Shown: positions 3,154 through 24,255 of the stretch, one piece after another | Numbering within the stretch: position 1 is the stretch's first letter | Layout of the letters: each line of letters starts with the position of its first letter | Assembly: GCA_025464735.1 (NCBI GenBank) | Contig: JAODMX010000474.1 | Location: forward strand, 1-25,865 | Reading direction: 5' to 3' | Length of the DNA stretch: 25,865 nucleotides | Source: Frondihabitans sp. | GTDB taxonomy: Bacteria > Actinomycetota > Actinomycetes > Actinomycetales > Microbacteriaceae | The notes under the pieces: model-generated | Databases searched by the model: none | What the model saw: only the letters and a program-made list of their open reading frames with translations | Told to the model about the DNA's origin: nothing | Program-made: the position numbers and the translations under genes

Positions 3154-3249
3154 GCTTCAAGGCTATGACCGAGGATCCGGGTCGCATGAGACGGATCCGG
3201 CCACGCACCGCCTCCTGACTGCCAGTCGGGTCGCGCCCGCAGGTCGACG

Positions 3250-3285
3250 AAGGGCCCCGCCTCCTTGAGTGGAGGAAGGGCCCTT
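3250..3285 (-). terminator. Strong hairpin after groES
   Basis: AAGGGCC-CCG-CCTCC-TTGAGT-GGAGG-AAG-GGCCCTT forms two perfect stacked stems (7 and 5 bp) separated by a 3x3 internal loop. It starts 18 bases beyond the groES stop codon. It lacks a T tract on the minus strand, so termination may be partial or protein-assisted. It separates the heat-shock gene from rarD. Confidence 0.6.
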
Positions 3286-3303
3286 CGGGCGGTGCGGTCG
3301 CTA

Positions 3304-3600
3304 CTACGCGACGATGACTGCCAGCACGTCGCGAGCGGAAAGCACCAGCAGGTCTTCACCCGAGTACTTCACCTCGGTTCCGCCGTACTTCGAGTAGATG
3401 ACCTTGTCGCCCACGGCGACGTCGAGCGGAACGCGGTTGCCGTTGTCGTCGATGCGACCCGGACCGACTGCCACGACCTCGCCCTCCTGGGGCTTCTCCT
3501 TGGCGGTGTCGGGGATCACAAGACCGGAAGCAGTGGTCTGCTCGGCCTCGACCTGACGGATGACGATGCGATCTTCGAGCGGCTTGATGTTGACCGACAC
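3304..3600 (-). CDS. groES: Co-chaperonin GroES (Hsp10)
   Basis: A 98-residue co-chaperonin, the lid of the GroEL folding chamber in the cytoplasm. It shows the family start [14 protein letters not shown], the mobile loop region [21 protein letters not shown] at about residues 17-37, the VVAVGPGR turn, and the closing [15 protein letters not shown]...YLVL-like strand ([18 protein letters not shown]). The GTG at 3600 was chosen over an upstream ATG at 3621 because GAGG (in AAGAAGAGG) lies 6 bases before it and the family begins here. The stop is a tandem TAG TAG. No groEL follows; the next gene is rarD. So the chaperonin partner must be encoded elsewhere. Regulation is by two CIRCE operators upstream. 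Confidence 0.98.
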
Positions 3601-4987: not shown

Positions 4988-5014
4988 CGGTCGGTGTGCT
5001 GCTGCTCGCTGGCG

Positions 5015-5073
5015 GCGAGTGTCCACAATGTGCTGTCTCAGTTCGATGCAGGCAGCGCATGGTGGACACTCGC
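5015..5073. terminator. Long inverted repeat between convergent genes; probable bidirectional terminator
   Basis: Arms 5015-5035 and 5053-5073 are 21 bases each with two mismatches around a 17-base loop. The outer core GCGAGTGTCCAC is perfectly repeated as its complement GTGGACACTCGC. It fills the 93-base gap between the stop of the methyltransferase (4987, +) and the stop of the DUF4190 gene (5081, -), so it can fold in either transcript. No T tract follows on either side. Confidence 0.65.
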
Positions 5074-5080
5074 GAGAGGG

Positions 5081-5905
5081 CTAGGGGTTGTACGTGCCGC
5101 CGTACTGGTCGCCCTGGGAGAAAGCCGTCCCTAGGATGATGAAGAACGCAAGGGTGAGGGCGATGCTCACGAAGCCGCAGATGATGCCGGCGAGCGCCAT
5201 CCCCGACCCTGTCTGCTGGAACCTCCTGATGCGACCGCGCGCGATGAAGCCCAGGACGACCGCAGCGATGCCCATCAGGCCGAAGGTGAAGACCCACCCC
5301 ACGACGAGACTGGCGATGCCGAGGATCATCGACACGAGCGCGAGCGCACTCTGGCTGCCGGGGCGCGGGACCGGATTGCCCGGGTTGTAGGCGCCGTAGG
5401 GCTGGGCGCCGTACGGCTGGCCGCCGTAGGGCTGGGCCGGGAACTGCTGCGGTGGGTACTGCTGGCCCGGATACGGGGGGACGCCGGGCTGCTGGACGGG
5501 ATAGGGCTGGGCGCCGGGCTGCTGGGCGTACTGCCCGTATGCCTGCTGTTGCGCGCCGGGCTGGCCCGGATACTGCGGGGCACCGGATTGCTGGCCCGGA
5601 TACTGGGCGCCGGCCTGCTGCCCGTAGCTCGGCTGCTGGCCCTGCGCGGGCGCCTGCTGGCCGTACACCGGCTGGCCCTGCACCGGCTGCCCGGCGCCGG
5701 GCGTCCCGGCCGTTGCGGGCGGCGTACCGACCGAAGGCGTCGCGACCGGAGGCGTCGCGGGCGTCGGTGTGTCCGCCACCCCAGGGGCGGTGGTCTCGGC
5801 GGCGGCCGTCTCGGCATCGCCCGAATCGACCGACGCGTTCTCGACCGGGGTGTTGTCGCCTGACCCGTCGAAAGGATCGTTGTCGGATGGTGTCTGGTCG
5901 GACAT
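5081..5905 (-). CDS. DUF4190 membrane protein with long Gln/Pro/Gly/Tyr-rich N-terminal region
   Basis: A 274-residue protein. Residues 1-45 are acidic (MSDQTPSDNDPFDGSGDN...). Residues 46-75 are Ala/Thr/Pro-rich. Residues 76-180 are a low-complexity region built of short repeats such as YGQQ, YPGQQ, QPYG and PGAQ, with almost no charged residues. The C-terminal 90 residues are a DUF4190 domain: two hydrophobic helices (SALALVSMILGIASLVVGWV and a segment near MALAGIICGFVSIALTLAFF) separated by a short Arg-rich loop, GFIARGRIRRF. The domain is common in actinobacterial membrane proteins of unknown function, and the disordered part probably lies in the cytoplasm. The ATG at 5905 begins the conserved acidic start, with a weak GGGAG upstream. 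It is transcribed after tsaD with a 161-base gap, so it may be independent. Confidence 0.85.
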   Translation of the reverse strand: MSDQTPSDNDPFDGSGDNTPVENASVDSGDAETAAAETTAPGVADTPTPATPPVATPSVGTPPATAGTPGAGQPVQGQPVYGQQAPAQGQQPSYGQQAGAQYPGQQSGAPQYPGQPGAQQQAYGQYAQQPGAQPYPVQQPGVPPYPGQQYPPQQFPAQPYGGQPYGAQPYGAYNPGNPVPRPGSQSALALVSMILGIASLVVGWVFTFGLMGIAAVVLGFIARGRIRRFQQTGSGMALAGIICGFVSIALTLAFFIILGTAFSQGDQYGGTYNP

Positions 5906-8275: not shown

Positions 8276-8322
8276 CCTCCAATCGTAGGCGTCTGGCCGC
8301 GCGCCCACGATGTCGCGCCCCG

Positions 8323-8434
8323 TCGCCCACGAATCGGACTACGCGCCACGAAGCGGCGTGGCGGGCGAGGCTCCGCCCAGAAATCGGACTCGGCACCACG
8401 AAGCTGTTTGGTGCCGAGTCCGATTCGTGGGCGA
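8323..8434. repeat. Palindromic island between tsaE and tsaB with competing stems
   Basis: Three stems are visible. The outer arms TCGCCCACGAATCGGACT (8323-8340) and its exact complement (8417-8434) make 18 perfect pairs. An inner hairpin has arms 8382-8398 and 8409-8425, 17 perfect pairs around a 10-base loop. A small hairpin CGCCACG-aagcgg-CGTGGCG lies at 8344-8363. The right arms of the first two share 8417-8425, so they cannot both form in full. The unit AATCGGACT-N5-CCACGAAGC occurs twice in direct orientation (8332-8354, 8382-8404). No gene is visible in this gap. Confidence 0.85.
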
Positions 8435-8465
8435 AGGCGACGGCGACGGCGAGCGGCAGCCAGCG

Positions 8466-8999
8466 TCAGGCGGGCAGCGCGACGCCCGACCACCGTGGGC
8501 CGTGCGCGTCGAGGGTCACGACGCGGGGTTCGTCGGCCTCGCCGGCTTCGGAGCCGACGTCGGTGGCGACATCGGTGGCGACATCGGAGCCATCATCGCC
8601 TCCCGCGCCCCCGCCGACCGGCCGCTCGATCCGCACGTCGAGCCACGACTCGGCGACCCCGTCGAGCAGCCCCTCACCCCATTCGACCACCACAACCGAC
8701 GGCGCGTAGTCGAGGTCGAGGTCGTCGAGCTCGGCGGCGAAGCCCAGCCGGTACGCGTCGACGTGGACGAGTGGCACCCCGTCAGCGGCGAGCGAGGGAT
8801 GCGTCCGCGCCAGTACGAAGGTCGGCGATGCCACCTGCCCACGCACCCCGAGCCCGCGCCCGATGCCGCGCGTGAGCGTCGTCTTCCCCGCCCCGAGTGG
8901 GCCGGTCAGCACGACGAGGTCACCCGCCCGAAGGAGACCGGCGAGCGCGAGCCCCAGTTCTTCCATAGCCGAAGAGGAAGCGACGGTGAGCGTCGTCAT
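8466..8999 (-). CDS. tsaE: tRNA threonylcarbamoyladenosine biosynthesis ATPase TsaE
   Basis: A 177-residue P-loop ATPase (YjeE) that drives turnover of the TsaB-TsaD complex in t6A synthesis. The Walker A motif is GPLGAGKT at residues 33-40. The family motifs SPTFVLAR (switch-like), HVDAYRL and VVVEWGEGLL follow at about 58-112. Residues 129-157 are an acidic Gly/Asp/Val-rich insertion not expected in TsaE, encoded partly by a tandem 12-base repeat at 8560-8583. The conserved C-terminal strand resumes after it. The ATG at 8999 overlaps the upstream racemase stop in ATGA, so translation is coupled. The family is usually about 150 residues, and the insertion explains the extra length. Confidence 0.95.
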   Translation of the reverse strand: MTTLTVASSSAMEELGLALAGLLRAGDLVVLTGPLGAGKTTLTRGIGRGLGVRGQVASPTFVLARTHPSLAADGVPLVHVDAYRLGFAAELDDLDLDYAPSVVVVEWGEGLLDGVAESWLDVRIERPVGGGAGGDDGSDVATDVATDVGSEAGEADEPRVVTLDAHGPRWSGVALPA

Positions 9000-10162
9000 C
9001 CGACGTACACCCGCGGGATCCGGGGGCCAAGACCCGAACAGAGTTCTTCGCCGATCGTGCCGATCAGGTCGGCCCACTCGCCCACCGTCAGCTCGCCGGA
9101 CGAGCCGGTGCCGAAGAGCGTCGCCTCGTCGCCGACCTCGATCGGGTCGTCGCCGACGTCGATCAGGAACTGGTCCATCGCCACGCGCCCGACGATCGGG
9201 TAGCGGTGGCCGCGCACGGCGACGCTGCAGCCGTTCTGGGATCGGCGCGGGATGCCGTCGGCGTAGCCGATCGGCACGAGGGCCACGGTCGTGTCGCGGG
9301 GTGCACGGAAGGTGTAGTCGTACGAGACCCCCGTCCCTGCCGCGATGCGCTTCACCCGGGCGATCCTGGCCGAGAGCGTGAGCACCGGCGTCAGCCCGCG
9401 GTCGGCCGCGCTGACGCCGTCGGTCACGGGAATGCCATAGGTGTTCGAGCCCATCCTGACCATGTCGAGCCGCAGCTCCGGCCTCTCCATCCCCGCCGAC
9501 GAGGCGGTCAGATGCCGGCGTTCGAATCGGGCGCCGAGCGCCTCGGCCTCGTCGATGGCGCGAGCGAGCGCATCCGCGGACGATGTGTCTTCGTCGTCGG
9601 AGGCCTCGGCGAGATGCGAATATGCGCCGCGAAGACGCAGGATCCCTTCCTCGCGCAGCGAGACGGCTCGCGTCACGATCTCAGACCACTCGGTTGCGAG
9701 GGCTCCGTCGCGATGCAGCCCGGTGTCCACGTTCAGGTGCACCAGCGCCGCCGCGTCGAGAGCAGCGAAGGCCGGAGCGTCAGGGGCGGCGGCCGACGCA
9801 ACCGAACGGACCGCCGCGGCCACCGCCTCAAGCTGTCGCAGAGTCGAGATGCCGAGGTCGATGCGCTCGGACACCGCCCGCTCGAACGTCTCGTGCGGCG
9901 AGAACTGCCAGGCGAAGATCGCGACACCGTCGCCGATCCCCGCGGCCCGGAGCTCGTGGGCGTTGGCGAGCTCGAGCGCGCCGAGCCAGCGCACCCCCGC
10001 GTCGACGGCTGCGGCCGCCATCGTCGTCGCCCCGTGCCCGTAGCCGTTGGCCTTGACGACAGCCATCAGTTCGGCCGGCTCGATGAGCCGCTGCAGTGCC
10101 ACGAGATTGGCGCGGTAAGCCGCGAGGTCGACCGTGGCGCGCCTCAGGTACGTGTCGCTCAT
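8996..10162 (-). CDS. alr: Alanine racemase family protein, second of a tandem pair
   Basis: A 388-residue fold-type III PLP racemase. The N-terminal barrel carries the PLP lysine in MAVVKANGYGHG (Lys37). The C-terminal beta domain carries the second catalytic residue Tyr281 in GVSYDYTFRA and the substrate-binding Met in GRVAMDQ (Met329). Differences from a textbook Alr are Asp282 where Gly is usual after the Tyr, Asn in HLNVDTGLHR where a carbamylated Lys often sits, and TASSAGM at the phosphate-binding ANSA position. An Ala-rich insertion lies at about 114-139. ATG 10162 overlaps the stop of the preceding racemase in ATGA. It probably supplies D-alanine for peptidoglycan, or racemises another amino acid. 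Which paralogue is the main alanine racemase cannot be told from the sequence. Confidence 0.9.
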   Translation of the reverse strand: MSDTYLRRATVDLAAYRANLVALQRLIEPAELMAVVKANGYGHGATTMAAAAVDAGVRWLGALELANAHELRAAGIGDGVAIFAWQFSPHETFERAVSERIDLGISTLRQLEAVAAAVRSVASAAAPDAPAFAALDAAALVHLNVDTGLHRDGALATEWSEIVTRAVSLREEGILRLRGAYSHLAEASDDEDTSSADALARAIDEAEALGARFERRHLTASSAGMERPELRLDMVRMGSNTYGIPVTDGVSAADRGLTPVLTLSARIARVKRIAAGTGVSYDYTFRAPRDTTVALVPIGYADGIPRRSQNGCSVAVRGHRYPIVGRVAMDQFLIDVGDDPIEVGDEATLFGTGSSGELTVGEWADLIGTIGEELCSGLGPRIPRVYVG

Positions 10163-11250
10163 CGATAGGTCCTCGGCAGACGCGCGGAGAGGCGGGCGAC
10201 GACTTCGTAGTTGATGGTGCCGGTGGCCTCCGCCCAGTCGTCAACGGTCGGGTGACCCGCTGTGGCATCGCCGAACAGCACGGCTTCGTCGCCCAGCTGG
10301 ATGTCGTCGTCGGGGCCGATCTCGACCGACAGGGCGTTCATGGCGATTCGGCCTACGACCGGGCGCAGCTTGCCGCCGAGCAGCACGCGCGCGTTGTTGC
10401 TGGCGACCCGTTCGATTCCGTCGGCGTACCCGATCGGAAGGAGCGCCAAACGCGTGTCCGAGGATGCACGCCAGGTGAAGCCGTACGACGTGCCCTCGCC
10501 CGCGGGGACCGCCTTGACGCCGATCACGGGCACGGCGAGCGTGAGCGCCGGGCGCAGTCCGAGATCGGCGGGGGTGCGCTCCGGGAACGGGCTGAGCCCG
10601 TAGCAGGCGAGCCCGAATCGCACGAGCGTGAACCGCGCCTCCGCGATCGTCAGCGCCGCGGCGGAGGCCGCGAGGTGCAGCACCGATGGAGTGATCCCAC
10701 GCTCGATCAGCATTCCGAAGGCGCGCTCGAAGAGGTCGATCTGGCGGCGGTCTTCGTCGGGCGAGGCATTCGAGACGTGAGTCATCAGCCCCTCGATCAG
10801 CACACGGTCACCGAGGTCGGCAGCACGATCGAAGAGCGCCTCCCACTCTCCTTCGGTCGCGCCGTTGCGACTCAGGCCCGTGTCGATCACGAGATGCACC
10901 GCCGGCACTCCAGCGGCGACGCAGGCGTCGAGCTGGGCGAGGTCGGAGACACCCGGCGTCACGTCGTGGCGGACGGCGCTCTCGAAAGTCTCGCCGGGGG
11001 CATGCAACCACGAGAGCACCGGCAGAGTGATGCCCGCCTCCCGAAGCGCCAGCGCTTCCGTGAGATCGACCACGCCCAGCCAGTCGACCCCCGCTTCCTC
11101 GAAGGCGCGAGCGCACTCGAGGGCGCCGTGCCCGTAGGCGTTGGCCTTGACGACGGCCATGACCTTGGCCGAGCCGACGGCAGACCGCAGAACCGCCACG
11201 TTGTGGGCGAGCGCGGTGGTGTCGATGGTGAGTCGCGCCTCCTGGGTCAT
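10159..11250 (-). CDS. alr: Alanine racemase family protein, first of a tandem pair
   Basis: A 363-residue PLP-dependent racemase that interconverts L- and D-alanine by family assignment. It has Lys35 in [13 protein letters not shown], the DTGLSRNG loop (124-130), Ser196 in HLAASAAA for PLP phosphate, Tyr256 in [10 protein letters not shown] and the [10 protein letters not shown] strand. The loop GRIAMNAL has Asn305 where Asp is usual (MDQ). It is clearly homologous to the next gene but quite divergent, so this is not a recent duplication. ATG 11250 overlaps the acpS stop in ATGA, and the residues upstream in frame belong to the shadow of acpS. It lies in a chain with glmS and acpS, which suits a role in cell-wall precursor supply. 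Confidence 0.92.
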
Positions 11251-11645
11251 TCCTCGCCGCCTTGACCCGCAGGATCCTGGGCTTCCGCGATCACAAACGC
11301 GGTCGCGACCCCGCCGTCGTGGCTGAGCGAGAGATGGACTCTGGTCACCCCGCGCGACGCTGCCAGCGCGGCCGCTCCCCCGCCGACCCCGAGCGAGGGC
11401 GCCCGCTGATCGTCCGCACTCACGACCATGTCGTGCCACGAGACGCCTGTCGACGAACCGAGCGCCTTGATGAACGCCTCCTTCGCGGCAAAGCGCGCGG
11501 CGAGCGACTCGATCCGCCGCGGTTCACCGTCGCGCAGGAGCTCCTGGTCGGTAAAGAGACGCCAGCGAAGCTTCGGGGTGCGTTCCAGGGCGCGGTCGAA
11601 CCGCGCGATGTCGACCACGTCGACGCCGATGCCCACAATGCTCAC
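11247..11645 (-). CDS. acpS: Holo-[acyl-carrier-protein] synthase
   Basis: A 132-residue 4'-phosphopantetheinyl transferase of the AcpS type, which moves phosphopantetheine from CoA to the Ser of acyl carrier protein. It has the Mg-binding [16 protein letters not shown] at the N-terminus, the second Mg ligand Glu in [16 protein letters not shown] (about residues 53-68), and the C-terminal [16 protein letters not shown]. The GTG at 11645 gives the exact family start and lies 13 bases after the glmS stop; the gap is GC-rich with GCGGGGCGG as a weak ribosome-binding site. Length is normal. It is co-transcribed between glmS and the racemases. Substrate supply from coaA (CoA synthesis) starts only 2 kb away. 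Confidence 0.96.
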
Positions 11646-14541: not shown

Positions 14542-14615
14542 CCGCAAAAAGTACGGTTCCACGCACGAAGTACGAACTAGAACGTACTCGTCGCACGAGC
14601 GCGTACTTCTTGCGG
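14542..14615. terminator. Inverted-repeat structure between convergent coaA and glmM
   Basis: Outer arms CCGCAAAAAGTACG (14542-14555) and CGTACTTCTTGCGG (14602-14615) pair with one mismatch. Inside, AGTACG-aactagaa-CGTACT forms a second small stem. The segment starts 28 bases after the coaA stop and ends 56 bases before the glmM stop, so both transcripts would run into it. No T tract is seen. The remaining bases to 14670 are GC-rich with no gene visible. Confidence 0.55.
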
Positions 14616-18085: not shown

Positions 18086-18254
18086 TTCGCCCAACACGGA
18101 AACCAAGTCTACGAGGCCGAGTGGCGGGCGGTCCGCGGCAACGGTCCCTCCGCAAAATGAAGGAGATCCCGACCCGACGAGGCAGACGGCGGCCGGAGTA
18201 GGGCGCGAAGGCACGATTCTCCTTCGTTTTGATCGGGCACAGCGGGCAGCATAA

Positions 18255-18292
18255 CGAAAGGCCCGCCCCCGGGACAGGGGGCGGGCCTTTCG
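18255..18292 (-). terminator. Terminator of the infA-rplQ operon
   Basis: A perfect 16-base stem (arms 18255-18270 and 18277-18292, CGAAAGGCCCGCCCCC and its complement) encloses a 6-base loop, 13 bases after the rplQ stop. On the minus strand only GTTAT follows, so there is no strong T tract. The stem is stable enough for termination in a high-GC genome. Any truA expression must come from read-through or a promoter overlapping this site. Confidence 0.8.
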
Positions 18293-18305
18293 GCTGTGGT
18301 GCGGA

Positions 18306-21718: not shown

Positions 21719-21748
21719 AGCTTATGTGATTGCGCTACAGTTTGCCAA
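21719..21748 (-). promoter_or_regulatory. Possible infA promoter
   Basis: On the minus strand TTGGCA (plus 21743-21748) and TAAGCT (plus 21719-21724) are 18 bases apart, a fair SigA-type promoter that would give a leader of roughly 120 bases. TTGACC lies further upstream as an alternative -35. A plus-strand TACAGT at 21736-21741 could be the -10 box of the divergent LCP gene, overlapping this promoter. Confidence 0.35.
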
Positions 21749-21822
21749 CCCGGCAGGTCAACCCGACACGCCGTTCTCGACTTCTCGACTTTTCGAGCGA
21801 CTCCGTCACGAAAGGGAGCCCT

Positions 21823-23085
21823 GTGCCCGGACAACGATCCAGCCGTAGAACCGCTAAGGAGCAAGGTATCGCCCGGCACGGCCGCCTGCGTCGCCCCAGC
21901 CCGGTGAAGTTCATTGCGCTCGTGGTCGCCGTGCTTGTCGGAGCTACCGCAGTCAGCGGCGCGTCGCTCGCCGCGATCGCCGCCGTATCGTTGAAATCCC
22001 AGATCAAGACCGTTTCTATCGGCGCGAAAGACGACAAGATCGCCCAGAACACCTCCATCGGAGCGATCAAGGGCGGCGCGAACATCCTGCTGGTCGGAAG
22101 CGACACCCGGGCGGGCCAGACGCAGGTGTCTGCGGGGGTCGCCGATGGCAGCCGAAATGACGTCACGATCCTGATTCATATCTCAGCGGACCACAAGCAG
22201 ATGACCGCCGTCAGCTTTCCGCGTGACCTGATGGTCGACATCCCCGCCTGCACCGGAACGGACGGTGCGACGTACCCTGCAGAGACTTACCAGCAATTTA
22301 ACACGACACTCGGAGAAGGGCTCGGCTGCAGCGTTGCGACCGTGGAATCGATGACAGGCCTGACGATTCCCTATGCGGCCGAGATCACGTTCGACGGCGT
22401 CATCGAAATGTCGAACGCGATCGGTGGTGTCAGCGTCTGTATCGCCCAACCCATCAACGACACCGATTCCGGCCTCGTCCTCTCCGCGGGCACTCACACC
22501 CTCGAGGGACTCCAGGCACTCGAGTTCCTCCGCACACGCCACGGTGTCGGTGACGGAAGCGACCTCGCCCGGATCAGCTCGCAGCAGGTCTTCCTCTCGT
22601 CGATGATGCGCAAGATCGTTTCGAGCGGCACCCTCGGAAATCCGCTCCAGCTGTACGGACTCGCCTCGGCCGCTGTCAAGAACATGACCCTCTCGCAGAG
22701 CCTGTCGTCGACCGACACCATGATCGAGCTGGGGCTGGCGTTGAAGAACATCAACCTCGCCAACGTCGTGTTCGTCCAGTACCCGACTGCGACGGATCCC
22801 CAGAACGTCAACCGTGTCATCCCGGACAGCGCCGATGCGACCATCCTCAACACCGACCTGCAACAGGATCTGAAGTTCACCCTGGGTGCCAACAGCACCG
22901 GGCGGGCGTCCGAAGTCAGCGGGTCGTCCACCTCCGGGTCGACGGGCACGGCGACTACCACCCCTTCGACCGGTACCGCGACGGCGACGGCGACGCCGAC
23001 CGCTACGTCAGGAACCTCGACGCTGCCCTCGACGATCACGGGACAGTCCGCCAACGAGCAGACCTGCTCGGTCGGTAACGGCTGA
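21823..23085 (+). CDS. LytR-CpsA-Psr (LCP) family cell-wall polymer ligase
   Basis: A 420-residue membrane-anchored LCP protein. Family members transfer undecaprenyl-linked glycopolymers (teichoic acid or arabinogalactan type) onto peptidoglycan outside the cell. A basic cytoplasmic N-terminus (1-28) precedes one transmembrane helix (about 29-56) and the LCP domain. The domain has ILLVGSDTRAG (Asp94, Arg96), RNDVTILIHI (Arg111, Asp113), VSFPRDLMVDIP (Arg134, Asp135), and GTHTLEGLQALEFLRTRHG with LARISSQQVFLSSM near the end. Residues 365-405 are a Ser/Thr/Gly/Ala-rich tail; no LytR_C domain follows. The start is GTG at 21823, chosen for AAAGGGAG 4 bases upstream. The gene is inverted between map and infA, and a perfect hairpin terminator follows. 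Confidence 0.92.
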   Translation: MPGQRSSRRTAKEQGIARHGRLRRPSPVKFIALVVAVLVGATAVSGASLAAIAAVSLKSQIKTVSIGAKDDKIAQNTSIGAIKGGANILLVGSDTRAGQTQVSAGVADGSRNDVTILIHISADHKQMTAVSFPRDLMVDIPACTGTDGATYPAETYQQFNTTLGEGLGCSVATVESMTGLTIPYAAEITFDGVIEMSNAIGGVSVCIAQPINDTDSGLVLSAGTHTLEGLQALEFLRTRHGVGDGSDLARISSQQVFLSSMMRKIVSSGTLGNPLQLYGLASAAVKNMTLSQSLSSTDTMIELGLALKNINLANVVFVQYPTATDPQNVNRVIPDSADATILNTDLQQDLKFTLGANSTGRASEVSGSSTSGSTGTATTTPSTGTATATATPTATSGTSTLPSTITGQSANEQTCSVGNG

Positions 23086-23118
23086 CGCGTCGTCGGCCCG
23101 CCCGGGCCTCGCCTCCGT

Positions 23119-23170
23119 AACTCCACAACACGCCGCTCACTTCTATTCGTGAGCGGCGTGTTGTGGAGTT
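23119..23170. terminator. Perfect 22-bp hairpin after the LCP gene
   Basis: Arms 23119-23140 and 23149-23170 are perfect complements of 22 bases (core AACTCCACAACACGCC) around the 8-base loop TTCTATTC. The right arm ends in GTT followed by TTG, giving four T residues in a row on the plus strand. It lies 33 bases beyond the LCP stop codon, so it should terminate that gene. It belongs to the same sequence family as the two 62-bp repeats that follow. Confidence 0.85.
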
Positions 23171-23207
23171 TTGCGCGCTGGTCCGCGCATCGCCACCACC
23201 CAGCGCC

Positions 23208-23269
23208 ACGGCTCAACTCCACAAATGGCCACCACACGCAAACATGAGTGGCGTGTTGTGGAGTCCTGC
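23208..23269. repeat. 62-bp palindromic direct repeat, copy 1
   Basis: Identical over 62 bases to 23311-23372. Each copy has hairpin arms ACTCCACAA-atg-GCCAC and GTGGC-gtg-TTGTGGAGT around a 15-base loop. The right half (GAGTGGCGTGTTGTGGAGT) is nearly identical to the right arm of the hairpin at 23119-23170. The 336-base gap between the LCP gene and map holds these elements and no gene. Confidence 0.92.
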
Positions 23270-23310
23270 AGACTCCGCCGCAAGCCGACGTCCCCTCGCC
23301 CCGTGACACG

Positions 23311-23372
23311 ACGGCTCAACTCCACAAATGGCCACCACACGCAAACATGAGTGGCGTGTTGTGGAGTCCTGC
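23311..23372. repeat. 62-bp palindromic direct repeat, copy 2
   Basis: An exact copy of 23208-23269 in the same orientation, after a 41-base unrelated spacer. It lies 49 bases before the map stop codon, so a map transcript on the minus strand would fold it as the first hairpin downstream and it could serve as a map terminator. Confidence 0.92.
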
Positions 23373-23421
23373 GGGGCGGGCACACACGAGCGCTCGCAGC
23401 CGCGCGCGCGGCCGGGCCCAG

Positions 23422-24255
23422 CTAGAGAAGCGGGACGGGGCGGACGCCCAAGGGCGCTAGGCCCGCCGCGCCGCCATCGACAGCGGTCAGCACCCAGATG
23501 CCGCCCGCATGGACGGCGACGGAGTGCTCCCAGTGCGAGGCGTCCGACGAGTCGACCGTGGTGACCGTCCAGTCGTCGTCCTGCGTGAAGGTGTCGATCC
23601 CCCCGGCGGTCACCATCGGCTCGATAGCGACCACGAGACCGGGACGGACTGCGGGCCCGCTGCCGCGCACCCGGTAGTTGAAGACGGGCGGATCTTCGTG
23701 CATTGAGCGACCGATGCCGTGTCCGACGTAGTCCTCGAGAATTCCGTACGACCCCTGCGTCTCGATGAAGTCCTCGATGGCTTCACCGACCTGGTTGAGG
23801 TGCTTCGCCGTGGCCAGGGCGGCGATCCCGTGCCAGAGCGACTGCTCGGTGACCTGATTGAGTTTCCTGCGAATTTCCGCGACCTCAGGATCCTGATGGT
23901 CACCCACCACAAACGTCCGCGCGCTGTCGCCGTTCCAGCCTTCGAACTGCGCTCCCGAGTCGATGGAGACGATGTCGCCCTCCGCCACCACCCGGTCACC
24001 CGGGATCCCGTGAACCACGTCGGAGTTGACCGAGGCACAGATCGTGTGCCGGTAGCCCGGCACGAGCATGAAGTTGGGCTCGCCGCCACCGTCGCGGATG
24101 GTCTTCTCGGCGATCGCGTCGAGCTCACCGGTCGTGACTCCGGGCCGGATGTCGGCCGCGACCGCGTCCAGCGACGCCGCGGTCAGGAGACCCGGCTGCA
24201 CCATCCTGCGCAGTTCGTCGGGCGTCTTGTAGATGCCCGGTTTGCGGAACGCCAC
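23422..24255 (-). CDS. map: Type I methionine aminopeptidase
   Basis: A 277-residue enzyme removing the initiator Met from new proteins. All pita-bread active-site residues are in place: His82 in NSDVVHGIPG, Asp99 in VSIDSGA, Asp110 in GWNGDSARTF, His179 in YVGHGIGRSMHEDP, Glu212 in VVAIEPMV and Glu243 in SHWEHSVAV. There is no N-terminal zinc-finger extension (MetAP Ia). The end (GGAAGLAPLGVRPVPLL) is a short extra tail. The start is GTG at 24255, 11 bases after the adk stop, with only a weak GGGG as ribosome-binding site. It is transcribed with secY and adk. The usual next gene, infA, is displaced by the inverted LCP gene and repeats. Confidence 0.97.
   Translation of the reverse strand: MAFRKPGIYKTPDELRRMVQPGLLTAASLDAVAADIRPGVTTGELDAIAEKTIRDGGGEPNFMLVPGYRHTICASVNSDVVHGIPGDRVVAEGDIVSIDSGAQFEGWNGDSARTFVVGDHQDPEVAEIRRKLNQVTEQSLWHGIAALATAKHLNQVGEAIEDFIETQGSYGILEDYVGHGIGRSMHEDPPVFNYRVRGSGPAVRPGLVVAIEPMVTAGGIDTFTQDDDWTVTTVDSSDASHWEHSVAVHAGGIWVLTAVDGGAAGLAPLGVRPVPLL

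What the first reader, a model, noticed from the sequence alone, without database searches (positions are those of the whole stretch)
23119..23372. A family of three related palindromes, two identical over 62 bp, between LCP and map
One perfect 22-bp hairpin and two exact 62-bp direct repeats share the core ACTCCACAA...TTGTGGAGT and a right half GAGYGGCGTGTTGTGGAGT. Exact identity of two non-coding copies 41 bp apart implies recent duplication or conversion, and the palindromes suggest a mobile (MITE- or REP-like) or protein-binding element. They also occupy the terminator position of both convergent genes. No known repeat family was recognised.
Basis: partly seen in the sequence, partly recalled or inferred. 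Interest (0 to 1): 0.7.

Follow-up and report, generated by a model that had tools for sequence, protein, structure and literature searches.

The report
Three duplicated hairpins between converging genes
Three related DNA hairpins, two of them identical, sit where two bacterial genes run towards each other and most likely act as stop signals for transcription; how they were copied is mildly unusual, but the arrangement looks ordinary.

Summary
Hairpin 1 (23119-23170) has perfect 22-bp arms. Two identical 62-bp units (23208-23269, 23311-23372) each fold into an imperfect hairpin. All six arms end in ACTCCACAA/TTGTGGAGT. The cluster fills much of a 336-bp gap between convergent LCP (+) and map (-) genes of a Frondihabitans-like actinobacterium.

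Best reading: a cluster of bidirectional 3'-end hairpins of the U-poor type known in GC-rich actinobacteria, which would stop, or protect the ends of, transcripts from both sides. One hairpin was copied locally, or homogenised by conversion. It is not a plain tandem duplication: identity is 62/62 inside the unit and near chance outside (17/41, 14/41). There is no supported target-site duplication, no GTAG tag and no other copy in the window.

A scan of 84,980 species genomes for the exact 19-mer gave three hits, about what chance gives, none in a hairpin. The window's own genome is not held and Microbacteriaceae genomes could not be reached, so a low-copy, species-specific mobile palindrome remains possible (about 0.2). 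The two other convergent gaps also carry inverted repeats, but strong hairpins occur at some other gaps too.

The parts
21730..23085 (+). LCP (LytR-CpsA-Psr) family gene, converging on the cluster from the left; start codon not settled
   Evidence: PF03816, E 1.3e-37; nearest organism-named relatives are Frondihabitans, 68-74% identity
23119..23170 (.). hairpin 1: perfect 22-bp arms, 8-nt loop
   Evidence: fold z about -10 on both strands
23208..23269 (.). 62-bp unit, copy A; hairpin arms 23216-23232 / 23248-23264
23270..23310 (.). 41-bp spacer between the identical units, not itself repeated
   Evidence: ungapped identity 17/41 to the stretch before copy A and 14/41 to the stretch after copy B, 13-13.6 expected; spacer alignments are reached by 400-438 of 500 shuffles
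23311..23372 (.). 62-bp unit, copy B; hairpin arms 23319-23335 / 23351-23367
23422..24255 (-). map, type I methionine aminopeptidase (start codon not settled), converging from the right; adk and secY lie upstream of it on the same strand
   Evidence: PF00557, E 5.4e-41; ADK and SecY in the next ORFs

Best explanation
The junction carries a three-hairpin, strand-symmetric 3'-end element shared by LCP (+) and the secY-adk-map side (-). RNA from either strand folds into stable hairpins, which would pause and release converging polymerases and shield mRNA 3' ends. They lack a strong U tract and so resemble the 'highly structured, U-lack' ends described for a GC-rich actinobacterium. The three hairpins come from one ancestor. 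Copies A and B became identical by a short, hairpin-bounded copying event (template switch or conversion) rather than by tandem duplication. Shown: sequence, predicted folds, position, identity limits. Inferred: termination or stabilisation activity and the copying mechanism.
For: The cluster lies wholly inside the 336-bp gap between two convergent genes. Hairpin 1 is the third strongest + strand 64-nt fold found in the window, at or below 1 in 3,226 sampled segments on each strand, and has the longest perfect arms. Each of the three hairpins folds on both strands. The two other convergent gaps of my hand-drawn gene map also hold inverted repeats: 5015-5073 (24-nt arms, 88%) and 14542-14615 (14-nt arms, 93%). 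Over 14 pairs chosen from the shared stem all three hairpins pair, with one G-C to A-T double change. Six of six tails have 0-2 U in 8 nt. In Streptomyces clavuligerus 353 of 535 highly structured 3' ends have fewer than three U in 8 bp, and bidirectional ends have longer stems and less read-through than all ends (PMC8269248, passages). No other copy in the window.
Against: No canonical terminator is scored in 22900-23600, and U-lack ends read through more than U-rich ones in S. clavuligerus (PMC8269248, passage). Position is not specific: counting gaps whose best fold is in the lowest 0.3% of segments, 2 of 3 convergent, 2 of 6 co-directional, 1 of 2 divergent and 0 of 1 mixed gaps qualify; the third convergent gap reaches only 0.37% on - and 4.8% on +. 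The single covarying pair is reached by 185 of 500 shuffles, and the structure was taken from these same sequences, two of which are identical in it. A terminator does not need two exact 62-bp copies. There are no RNA data.
Confidence: 0.62

Rival explanations
1. A REPIN- or MITE-like mobile palindrome: an inverted pair of the about 20-nt arm is the moving unit, and this junction collected three insertions.
For: Inverted-pair architecture with a conserved outer arm. Sharp 62/62 identity with flanks near chance (17/41, 14/41) is what insertion of a bounded unit predicts and a plain tandem duplication does not. Three copies lie in one junction.
Against: Target-site duplication not above chance at any of the three, though REP elements need not make one (recalled). 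No GTAG in the junction. No copy elsewhere in the window. None of the 3 exact 19-mer hits among 84,980 species genomes is in a hairpin. Ordered REPIN clusters in P. fluorescens SBW25 typically repeat their flanks too (PMC3116915, passage); here the flanks are not repeated.
Confidence: 0.2
2. A protein-binding array: three inverted operator sites (9-bp half sites TTGTGGAGT, 31-32 bp apart) for a DNA-binding protein.
For: The 9-bp half site is the same in six of six arms while the inside varies.
Against: It lies at gene ends, and no sigma-70-like site is scored there (other promoter types are not covered). No other half site in the window even with one mismatch. Pairing extends beyond the half site and is kept where one pair changes. 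A paper search for the 9-mers found 663 papers holding either; only the 20 listed titles were seen, and none is about a bacterial DNA repeat or a regulator's binding site.
Confidence: 0.1
3. A neutral scar or assembly error: the second 62-mer is an artefact or a random replication slip without function.
For: The window may be a metagenome contig, since no whole genome is held for it; exact short repeats can be misassembled.
Against: The two copies have different flanks on both sides, which an assembler duplication would not readily give (inference). Hairpin 1 and the units differ in letters but keep the shared stem.
Confidence: 0.08

Closest known systems
Bidirectional transcript ends (Bi-TEPs) and U-lack structured ends of actinobacteria, as in Streptomyces clavuligerus (PMC8269248, passages read)
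   Same: Long stable stem foldable on both strands, few U after the stem, here between converging genes
   Different: Three sequence-related hairpins in one junction, two of them identical over 62 bp; no 3'-end data here
REPINs (REP doublets forming hairpins; PMC3116915, passages read)
   Same: Two inverted copies of an about 20-nt arm forming a hairpin in extragenic DNA, clustered
   Different: No dispersed copies found, no transposase among the 34 window ORFs scanned, flanks not repeated
GTAG/CGTC-tagged REPs (PMC3733652, passages read)
   Same: Palindromic extragenic repeats, often near gene 3' ends
   Different: No GTAG in the junction; CGTC and GACG occur only outside the shared unit. Stems here are 17-22 bp, against 5-13 bp for single REPs in that paper's table (its REP dimers can form larger hairpins). 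The word Actinobacteria has 0 occurrences in that paper's main text

Membership tests
Bidirectional 3'-end hairpin / terminator | Position between the 3' ends of convergent genes | tested here: met
   LCP + ends 23085, map - ends 23422
Bidirectional 3'-end hairpin / terminator | Stable stem on both strands | tested here: met
   z about -10 on both strands for hairpin 1; -2.1 to -3.5 for the units
Bidirectional 3'-end hairpin / terminator | U tract after the stem (canonical intrinsic terminator) | tested here: not met
   0-2 U in 8 nt in six of six tails; no canonical site in the scan. Hairpin 1 on + is borderline: if its last A-T pair is left out of the stem, the tail read has 3 U. Filed only as the U-poor class
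Bidirectional 3'-end hairpin / terminator | Transcript 3' ends map there | not testable with these tools
   no RNA data
REPIN / REP element | Many dispersed copies in one genome | tested here: inconclusive
   none elsewhere in the 25,865-base window; whole genome not held
REPIN / REP element | GTAG tag at one end | tested here: not met
   no GTAG or CTAC in 23086-23421; GGAG occurs three times, each inside the right arm
REPIN / REP element | Associated RAYT (Y1 tyrosine) transposase | tested here: inconclusive
   none among the 34 window ORFs scanned with Pfam, some of them overlapping antisense frames; genome not held
MITE | Target-site duplication | tested here: not met
   best is 4 nt for copy A, none of 4 nt or more for the other two; 867 of 2,000 random places give 4 nt or more
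Rfam families | Score above gathering threshold | tested here: not met
   0 matches in the window

The most novel reading that the evidence does not exclude
The 62-bp unit is a REPIN-like mobile palindrome of an actinobacterial lineage. It is copied as a hairpin-bounded unit without target duplication, and it doubles as a convergent-gene terminator.
Probability: 0.18. Interest if true: 0.55.

Novelty: new member of a known kind. Interest (0 to 1): 0.22.

Why it matters
If ordinary, it is a tidy case of how bacteria thicken a stop signal between converging housekeeping genes by copying a hairpin. If the unit proves to be dispersed, it would be a REPIN-like family in actinobacteria; the one search that asked for REPIN, RAYT and Actinobacteria together found 0 papers in the held library, which is not a search of all literature.

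Tried and rejected
Simple recent tandem duplication of a 103-bp unit: rejected, because it predicts 103 matching positions; 62/62 match and the 41-bp flanks are near chance.

MITE with target duplication: not supported.

Kinship with the other long hairpins of the window: the 5015-5073 hairpin shares TCCACAA with the family, but its alignment score is reached by 51 of 1,000 shuffled hairpins against hairpin 1 and by 147 of 1,000 against the unit; the three others give 119 to 999 of 1,000. Left open, not claimed. A plasmid search with 5000-5085 gave 9 records with short matches of 19-30 bases.

Relatives by the gapped core ACTCCACAA-N16-46-TTGTGGAGT in viral contigs: 16 loci; L006 keeps a partly similar left arm without a mate; none of the 16 has both inner arms. 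A stricter two-arm pattern found 0. A looser 9-base-arm pattern found 30 loci of other hairpins. Searching viral contigs for relatives of map and adk found none. Searching plasmids for map and LCP gave only relatives under 60% identity.

A Hymenobacter plasmid hairpin (L023) shares 16 nt of the left and 12 nt of the right arm with hairpin 1 (blastn E 0.3, 81.5% over 52 query bases), and a second Hymenobacter plasmid has a hairpin with the same inner core. It is another phylum and was picked from 7.3 Gb, so I treat it as chance, without proof. In the covariance search L023 scores 24.2 bits and the pattern-selected L001, L006 and L009 22.6-24.0.

Integron attC: considered from the arm ends (recalled consensus) and dropped, because the right end does not fit. 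DNA-uptake sequence: dropped, because there is no copy outside the junction in the window.

Papers: 10 searches. Three papers were seen in passages only (PMC8269248; PMC3733652; PMC3116915); the others were seen only as listings with the start of the abstract.

Full report
What is there. Between the stop codon of an LCP-family gene (+, ends 23085) and the stop codon of map (-, ends at 23422) lie 336 bp. They hold a perfect 22-bp hairpin (23119-23170) and two identical 62-bp units (23208-23269, 23311-23372), each an imperfect hairpin. All six arms end in ACTCCACAA/TTGTGGAGT, and this 9-mer occurs nowhere else in the window even with one mismatch; 3 of 100 shuffles reach six such matches somewhere in the window, so the count alone is weak. 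The 19-base right arm occurs four times, counting the left arm of hairpin 1 on the other strand, against 0.01 expected. The base composition of the junction (67% GC) is that of the window.

Structure. Hairpin 1 folds at about -46 kcal/mol on either strand (z about -10); the units fold at -25.3 to -30.9 (z -2.1 to -3.5). Of 3,226 sampled 64-nt segments of the window, about one is as low as hairpin 1 on each strand; note that the gaps were scanned in small steps for their best fold, while the segments were single samples. Aligned, the three share a 9-bp outer clamp, a 3x3 position that is paired in hairpin 1 and open in the units, and a 5-bp inner stem. In the inner stem one pair changed on both sides (G-C to A-T) and stayed paired. 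That is one event, reached by 185 of 500 shuffles, on a structure taken from these sequences, so it is weak support.

How the copies arose. A tandem duplication with period 103 would give 103 matching positions. Only the 62 of the unit match; the 41 bases on either side match at 17/41 and 14/41, with 13-13.6 expected, and gapped alignment of the spacers is not above shuffles. The copied piece is therefore bounded by the hairpin plus about 8 and 5 bases. A template switch or conversion at a palindrome fits this, and so would the insertion of a palindromic element. Target-site duplication is not above chance. The perfect pairing of hairpin 1 would also fit quasi-palindrome correction; this is inference.

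Neighbourhood. By ORFs and Pfam I drew 12 gaps between genes by hand: 3 convergent, 6 co-directional, 2 divergent, 1 mixed. The two other convergent gaps hold inverted repeats, 5015-5073 (24-nt arms, 88%) and 14542-14615 (14-nt arms, 93%), and their folds beat shuffles (z -6.2 and -4.6 for the first, -4.7 for the second, which was folded on + only). Taking the best 64-nt fold of each gap, the lowest 0.3% is reached by 2 of 3 convergent (4988-5080, 23086-23421), 2 of 6 co-directional (8309-8465, 18215-18305), 1 of 2 divergent (3154-3559) and 0 of 1 mixed gaps; the third convergent gap reaches 0.37% on - and 4.8% on +. Strong hairpins are thus common at gaps here but not confined to convergent ends, and the numbers are small. 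The other hairpins are not clearly kin of this family.

Search for relatives. No genome is held for the window. The LCP protein points to a Frondihabitans-like Microbacteriaceae: four Frondihabitans-named proteins have 68-74% identity, and the best proteins without an organism name 75-79% (120 of 4,385 hits listed; the first is the window's own). The exact 19-mer was sought in one genome for each of 84,980 species: 3 hits, in a Saccharibacter, a Halobacteriales archaeon and an unnamed bacterial MAG. None has the partner arm in the 46-60 bases read on the partner side, and by my own equal-base estimate chance alone gives about 4. The scan was for exact matches only, so diverged kin in Frondihabitans would be missed. 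Viral contigs: 0 for the 19-mer, 16 chance-like loci for the gapped core, 0 for the two-arm pattern. Plasmids and phages: 3 records and 1 record with short weak matches for 23100-23400. E. coli genomes: none for hairpin 1. A covariance model of the three, run over the window and 8 of the loci then held, found only these three in the window, on both strands, plus eight matches in four loci that I had picked by pattern or BLAST and one weak place in L017 (E 0.54).

What it does. The position, the strand symmetry and the stem strength fit a bidirectional 3'-end element. The tails carry 0-2 U in 8 nt (3 for hairpin 1 on + if its last A-T pair is not counted as stem) and the consensus scan finds no canonical terminator, so it is not a textbook intrinsic terminator. 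In S. clavuligerus, 353 of 535 highly structured transcript ends have fewer than three U. Bidirectional ends there have longer stems and lower read-through than ends overall, which the authors relate to polymerase collision and pausing at the stem (PMC8269248, passages). In function the cluster works like that U-poor bidirectional class and is a probable member. The defining test, mapped 3' ends, could not be run.

Verdict. The mobile-element reading has one point for it (hairpin-bounded identity) and several against (no other copies found, no supported target duplication, no GTAG tag, flanks not repeated). Without the genome it cannot be excluded.

Noticed in passing
window 5015-5073: 24-nt inverted repeat (88%) filling most of the convergent gap between a THUMP-like gene and a DUF4190 gene; shares TCCACAA with the finding.
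   Followed up: partly
window 14542-14615: Nested inverted repeat built on AAGTACG/CGTACTT in the convergent gap between a PRK-family (coaA-like) gene and a phosphoglucomutase-family (glmM-like) gene.
   Followed up: partly
window 8382-8425: Perfect 17-bp hairpin between a tsaE gene and a TsaD-family (tsaB-like) gene on the same strand, where a terminator would split the operon.
   Followed up: no
window 8996-11439: Two alanine racemase genes in tandem on the minus strand.
   Followed up: no
L028, L034-L037, L042, L044, L046, L049, L050, L052: 11 of the 30 viral loci, of varied GC, share a hairpin AGGTGCCACAACACC...GGTGTTGTGGCACCT with varied loops: a recurring hairpin unrelated to this finding.
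   Followed up: no
L023 301-353 and L054 395-439: Two Hymenobacter plasmids carry hairpins with the shared core ACGCCGTTACTGGCTATT and different outer arms; the L023 arms resemble hairpin 1.
   Followed up: partly
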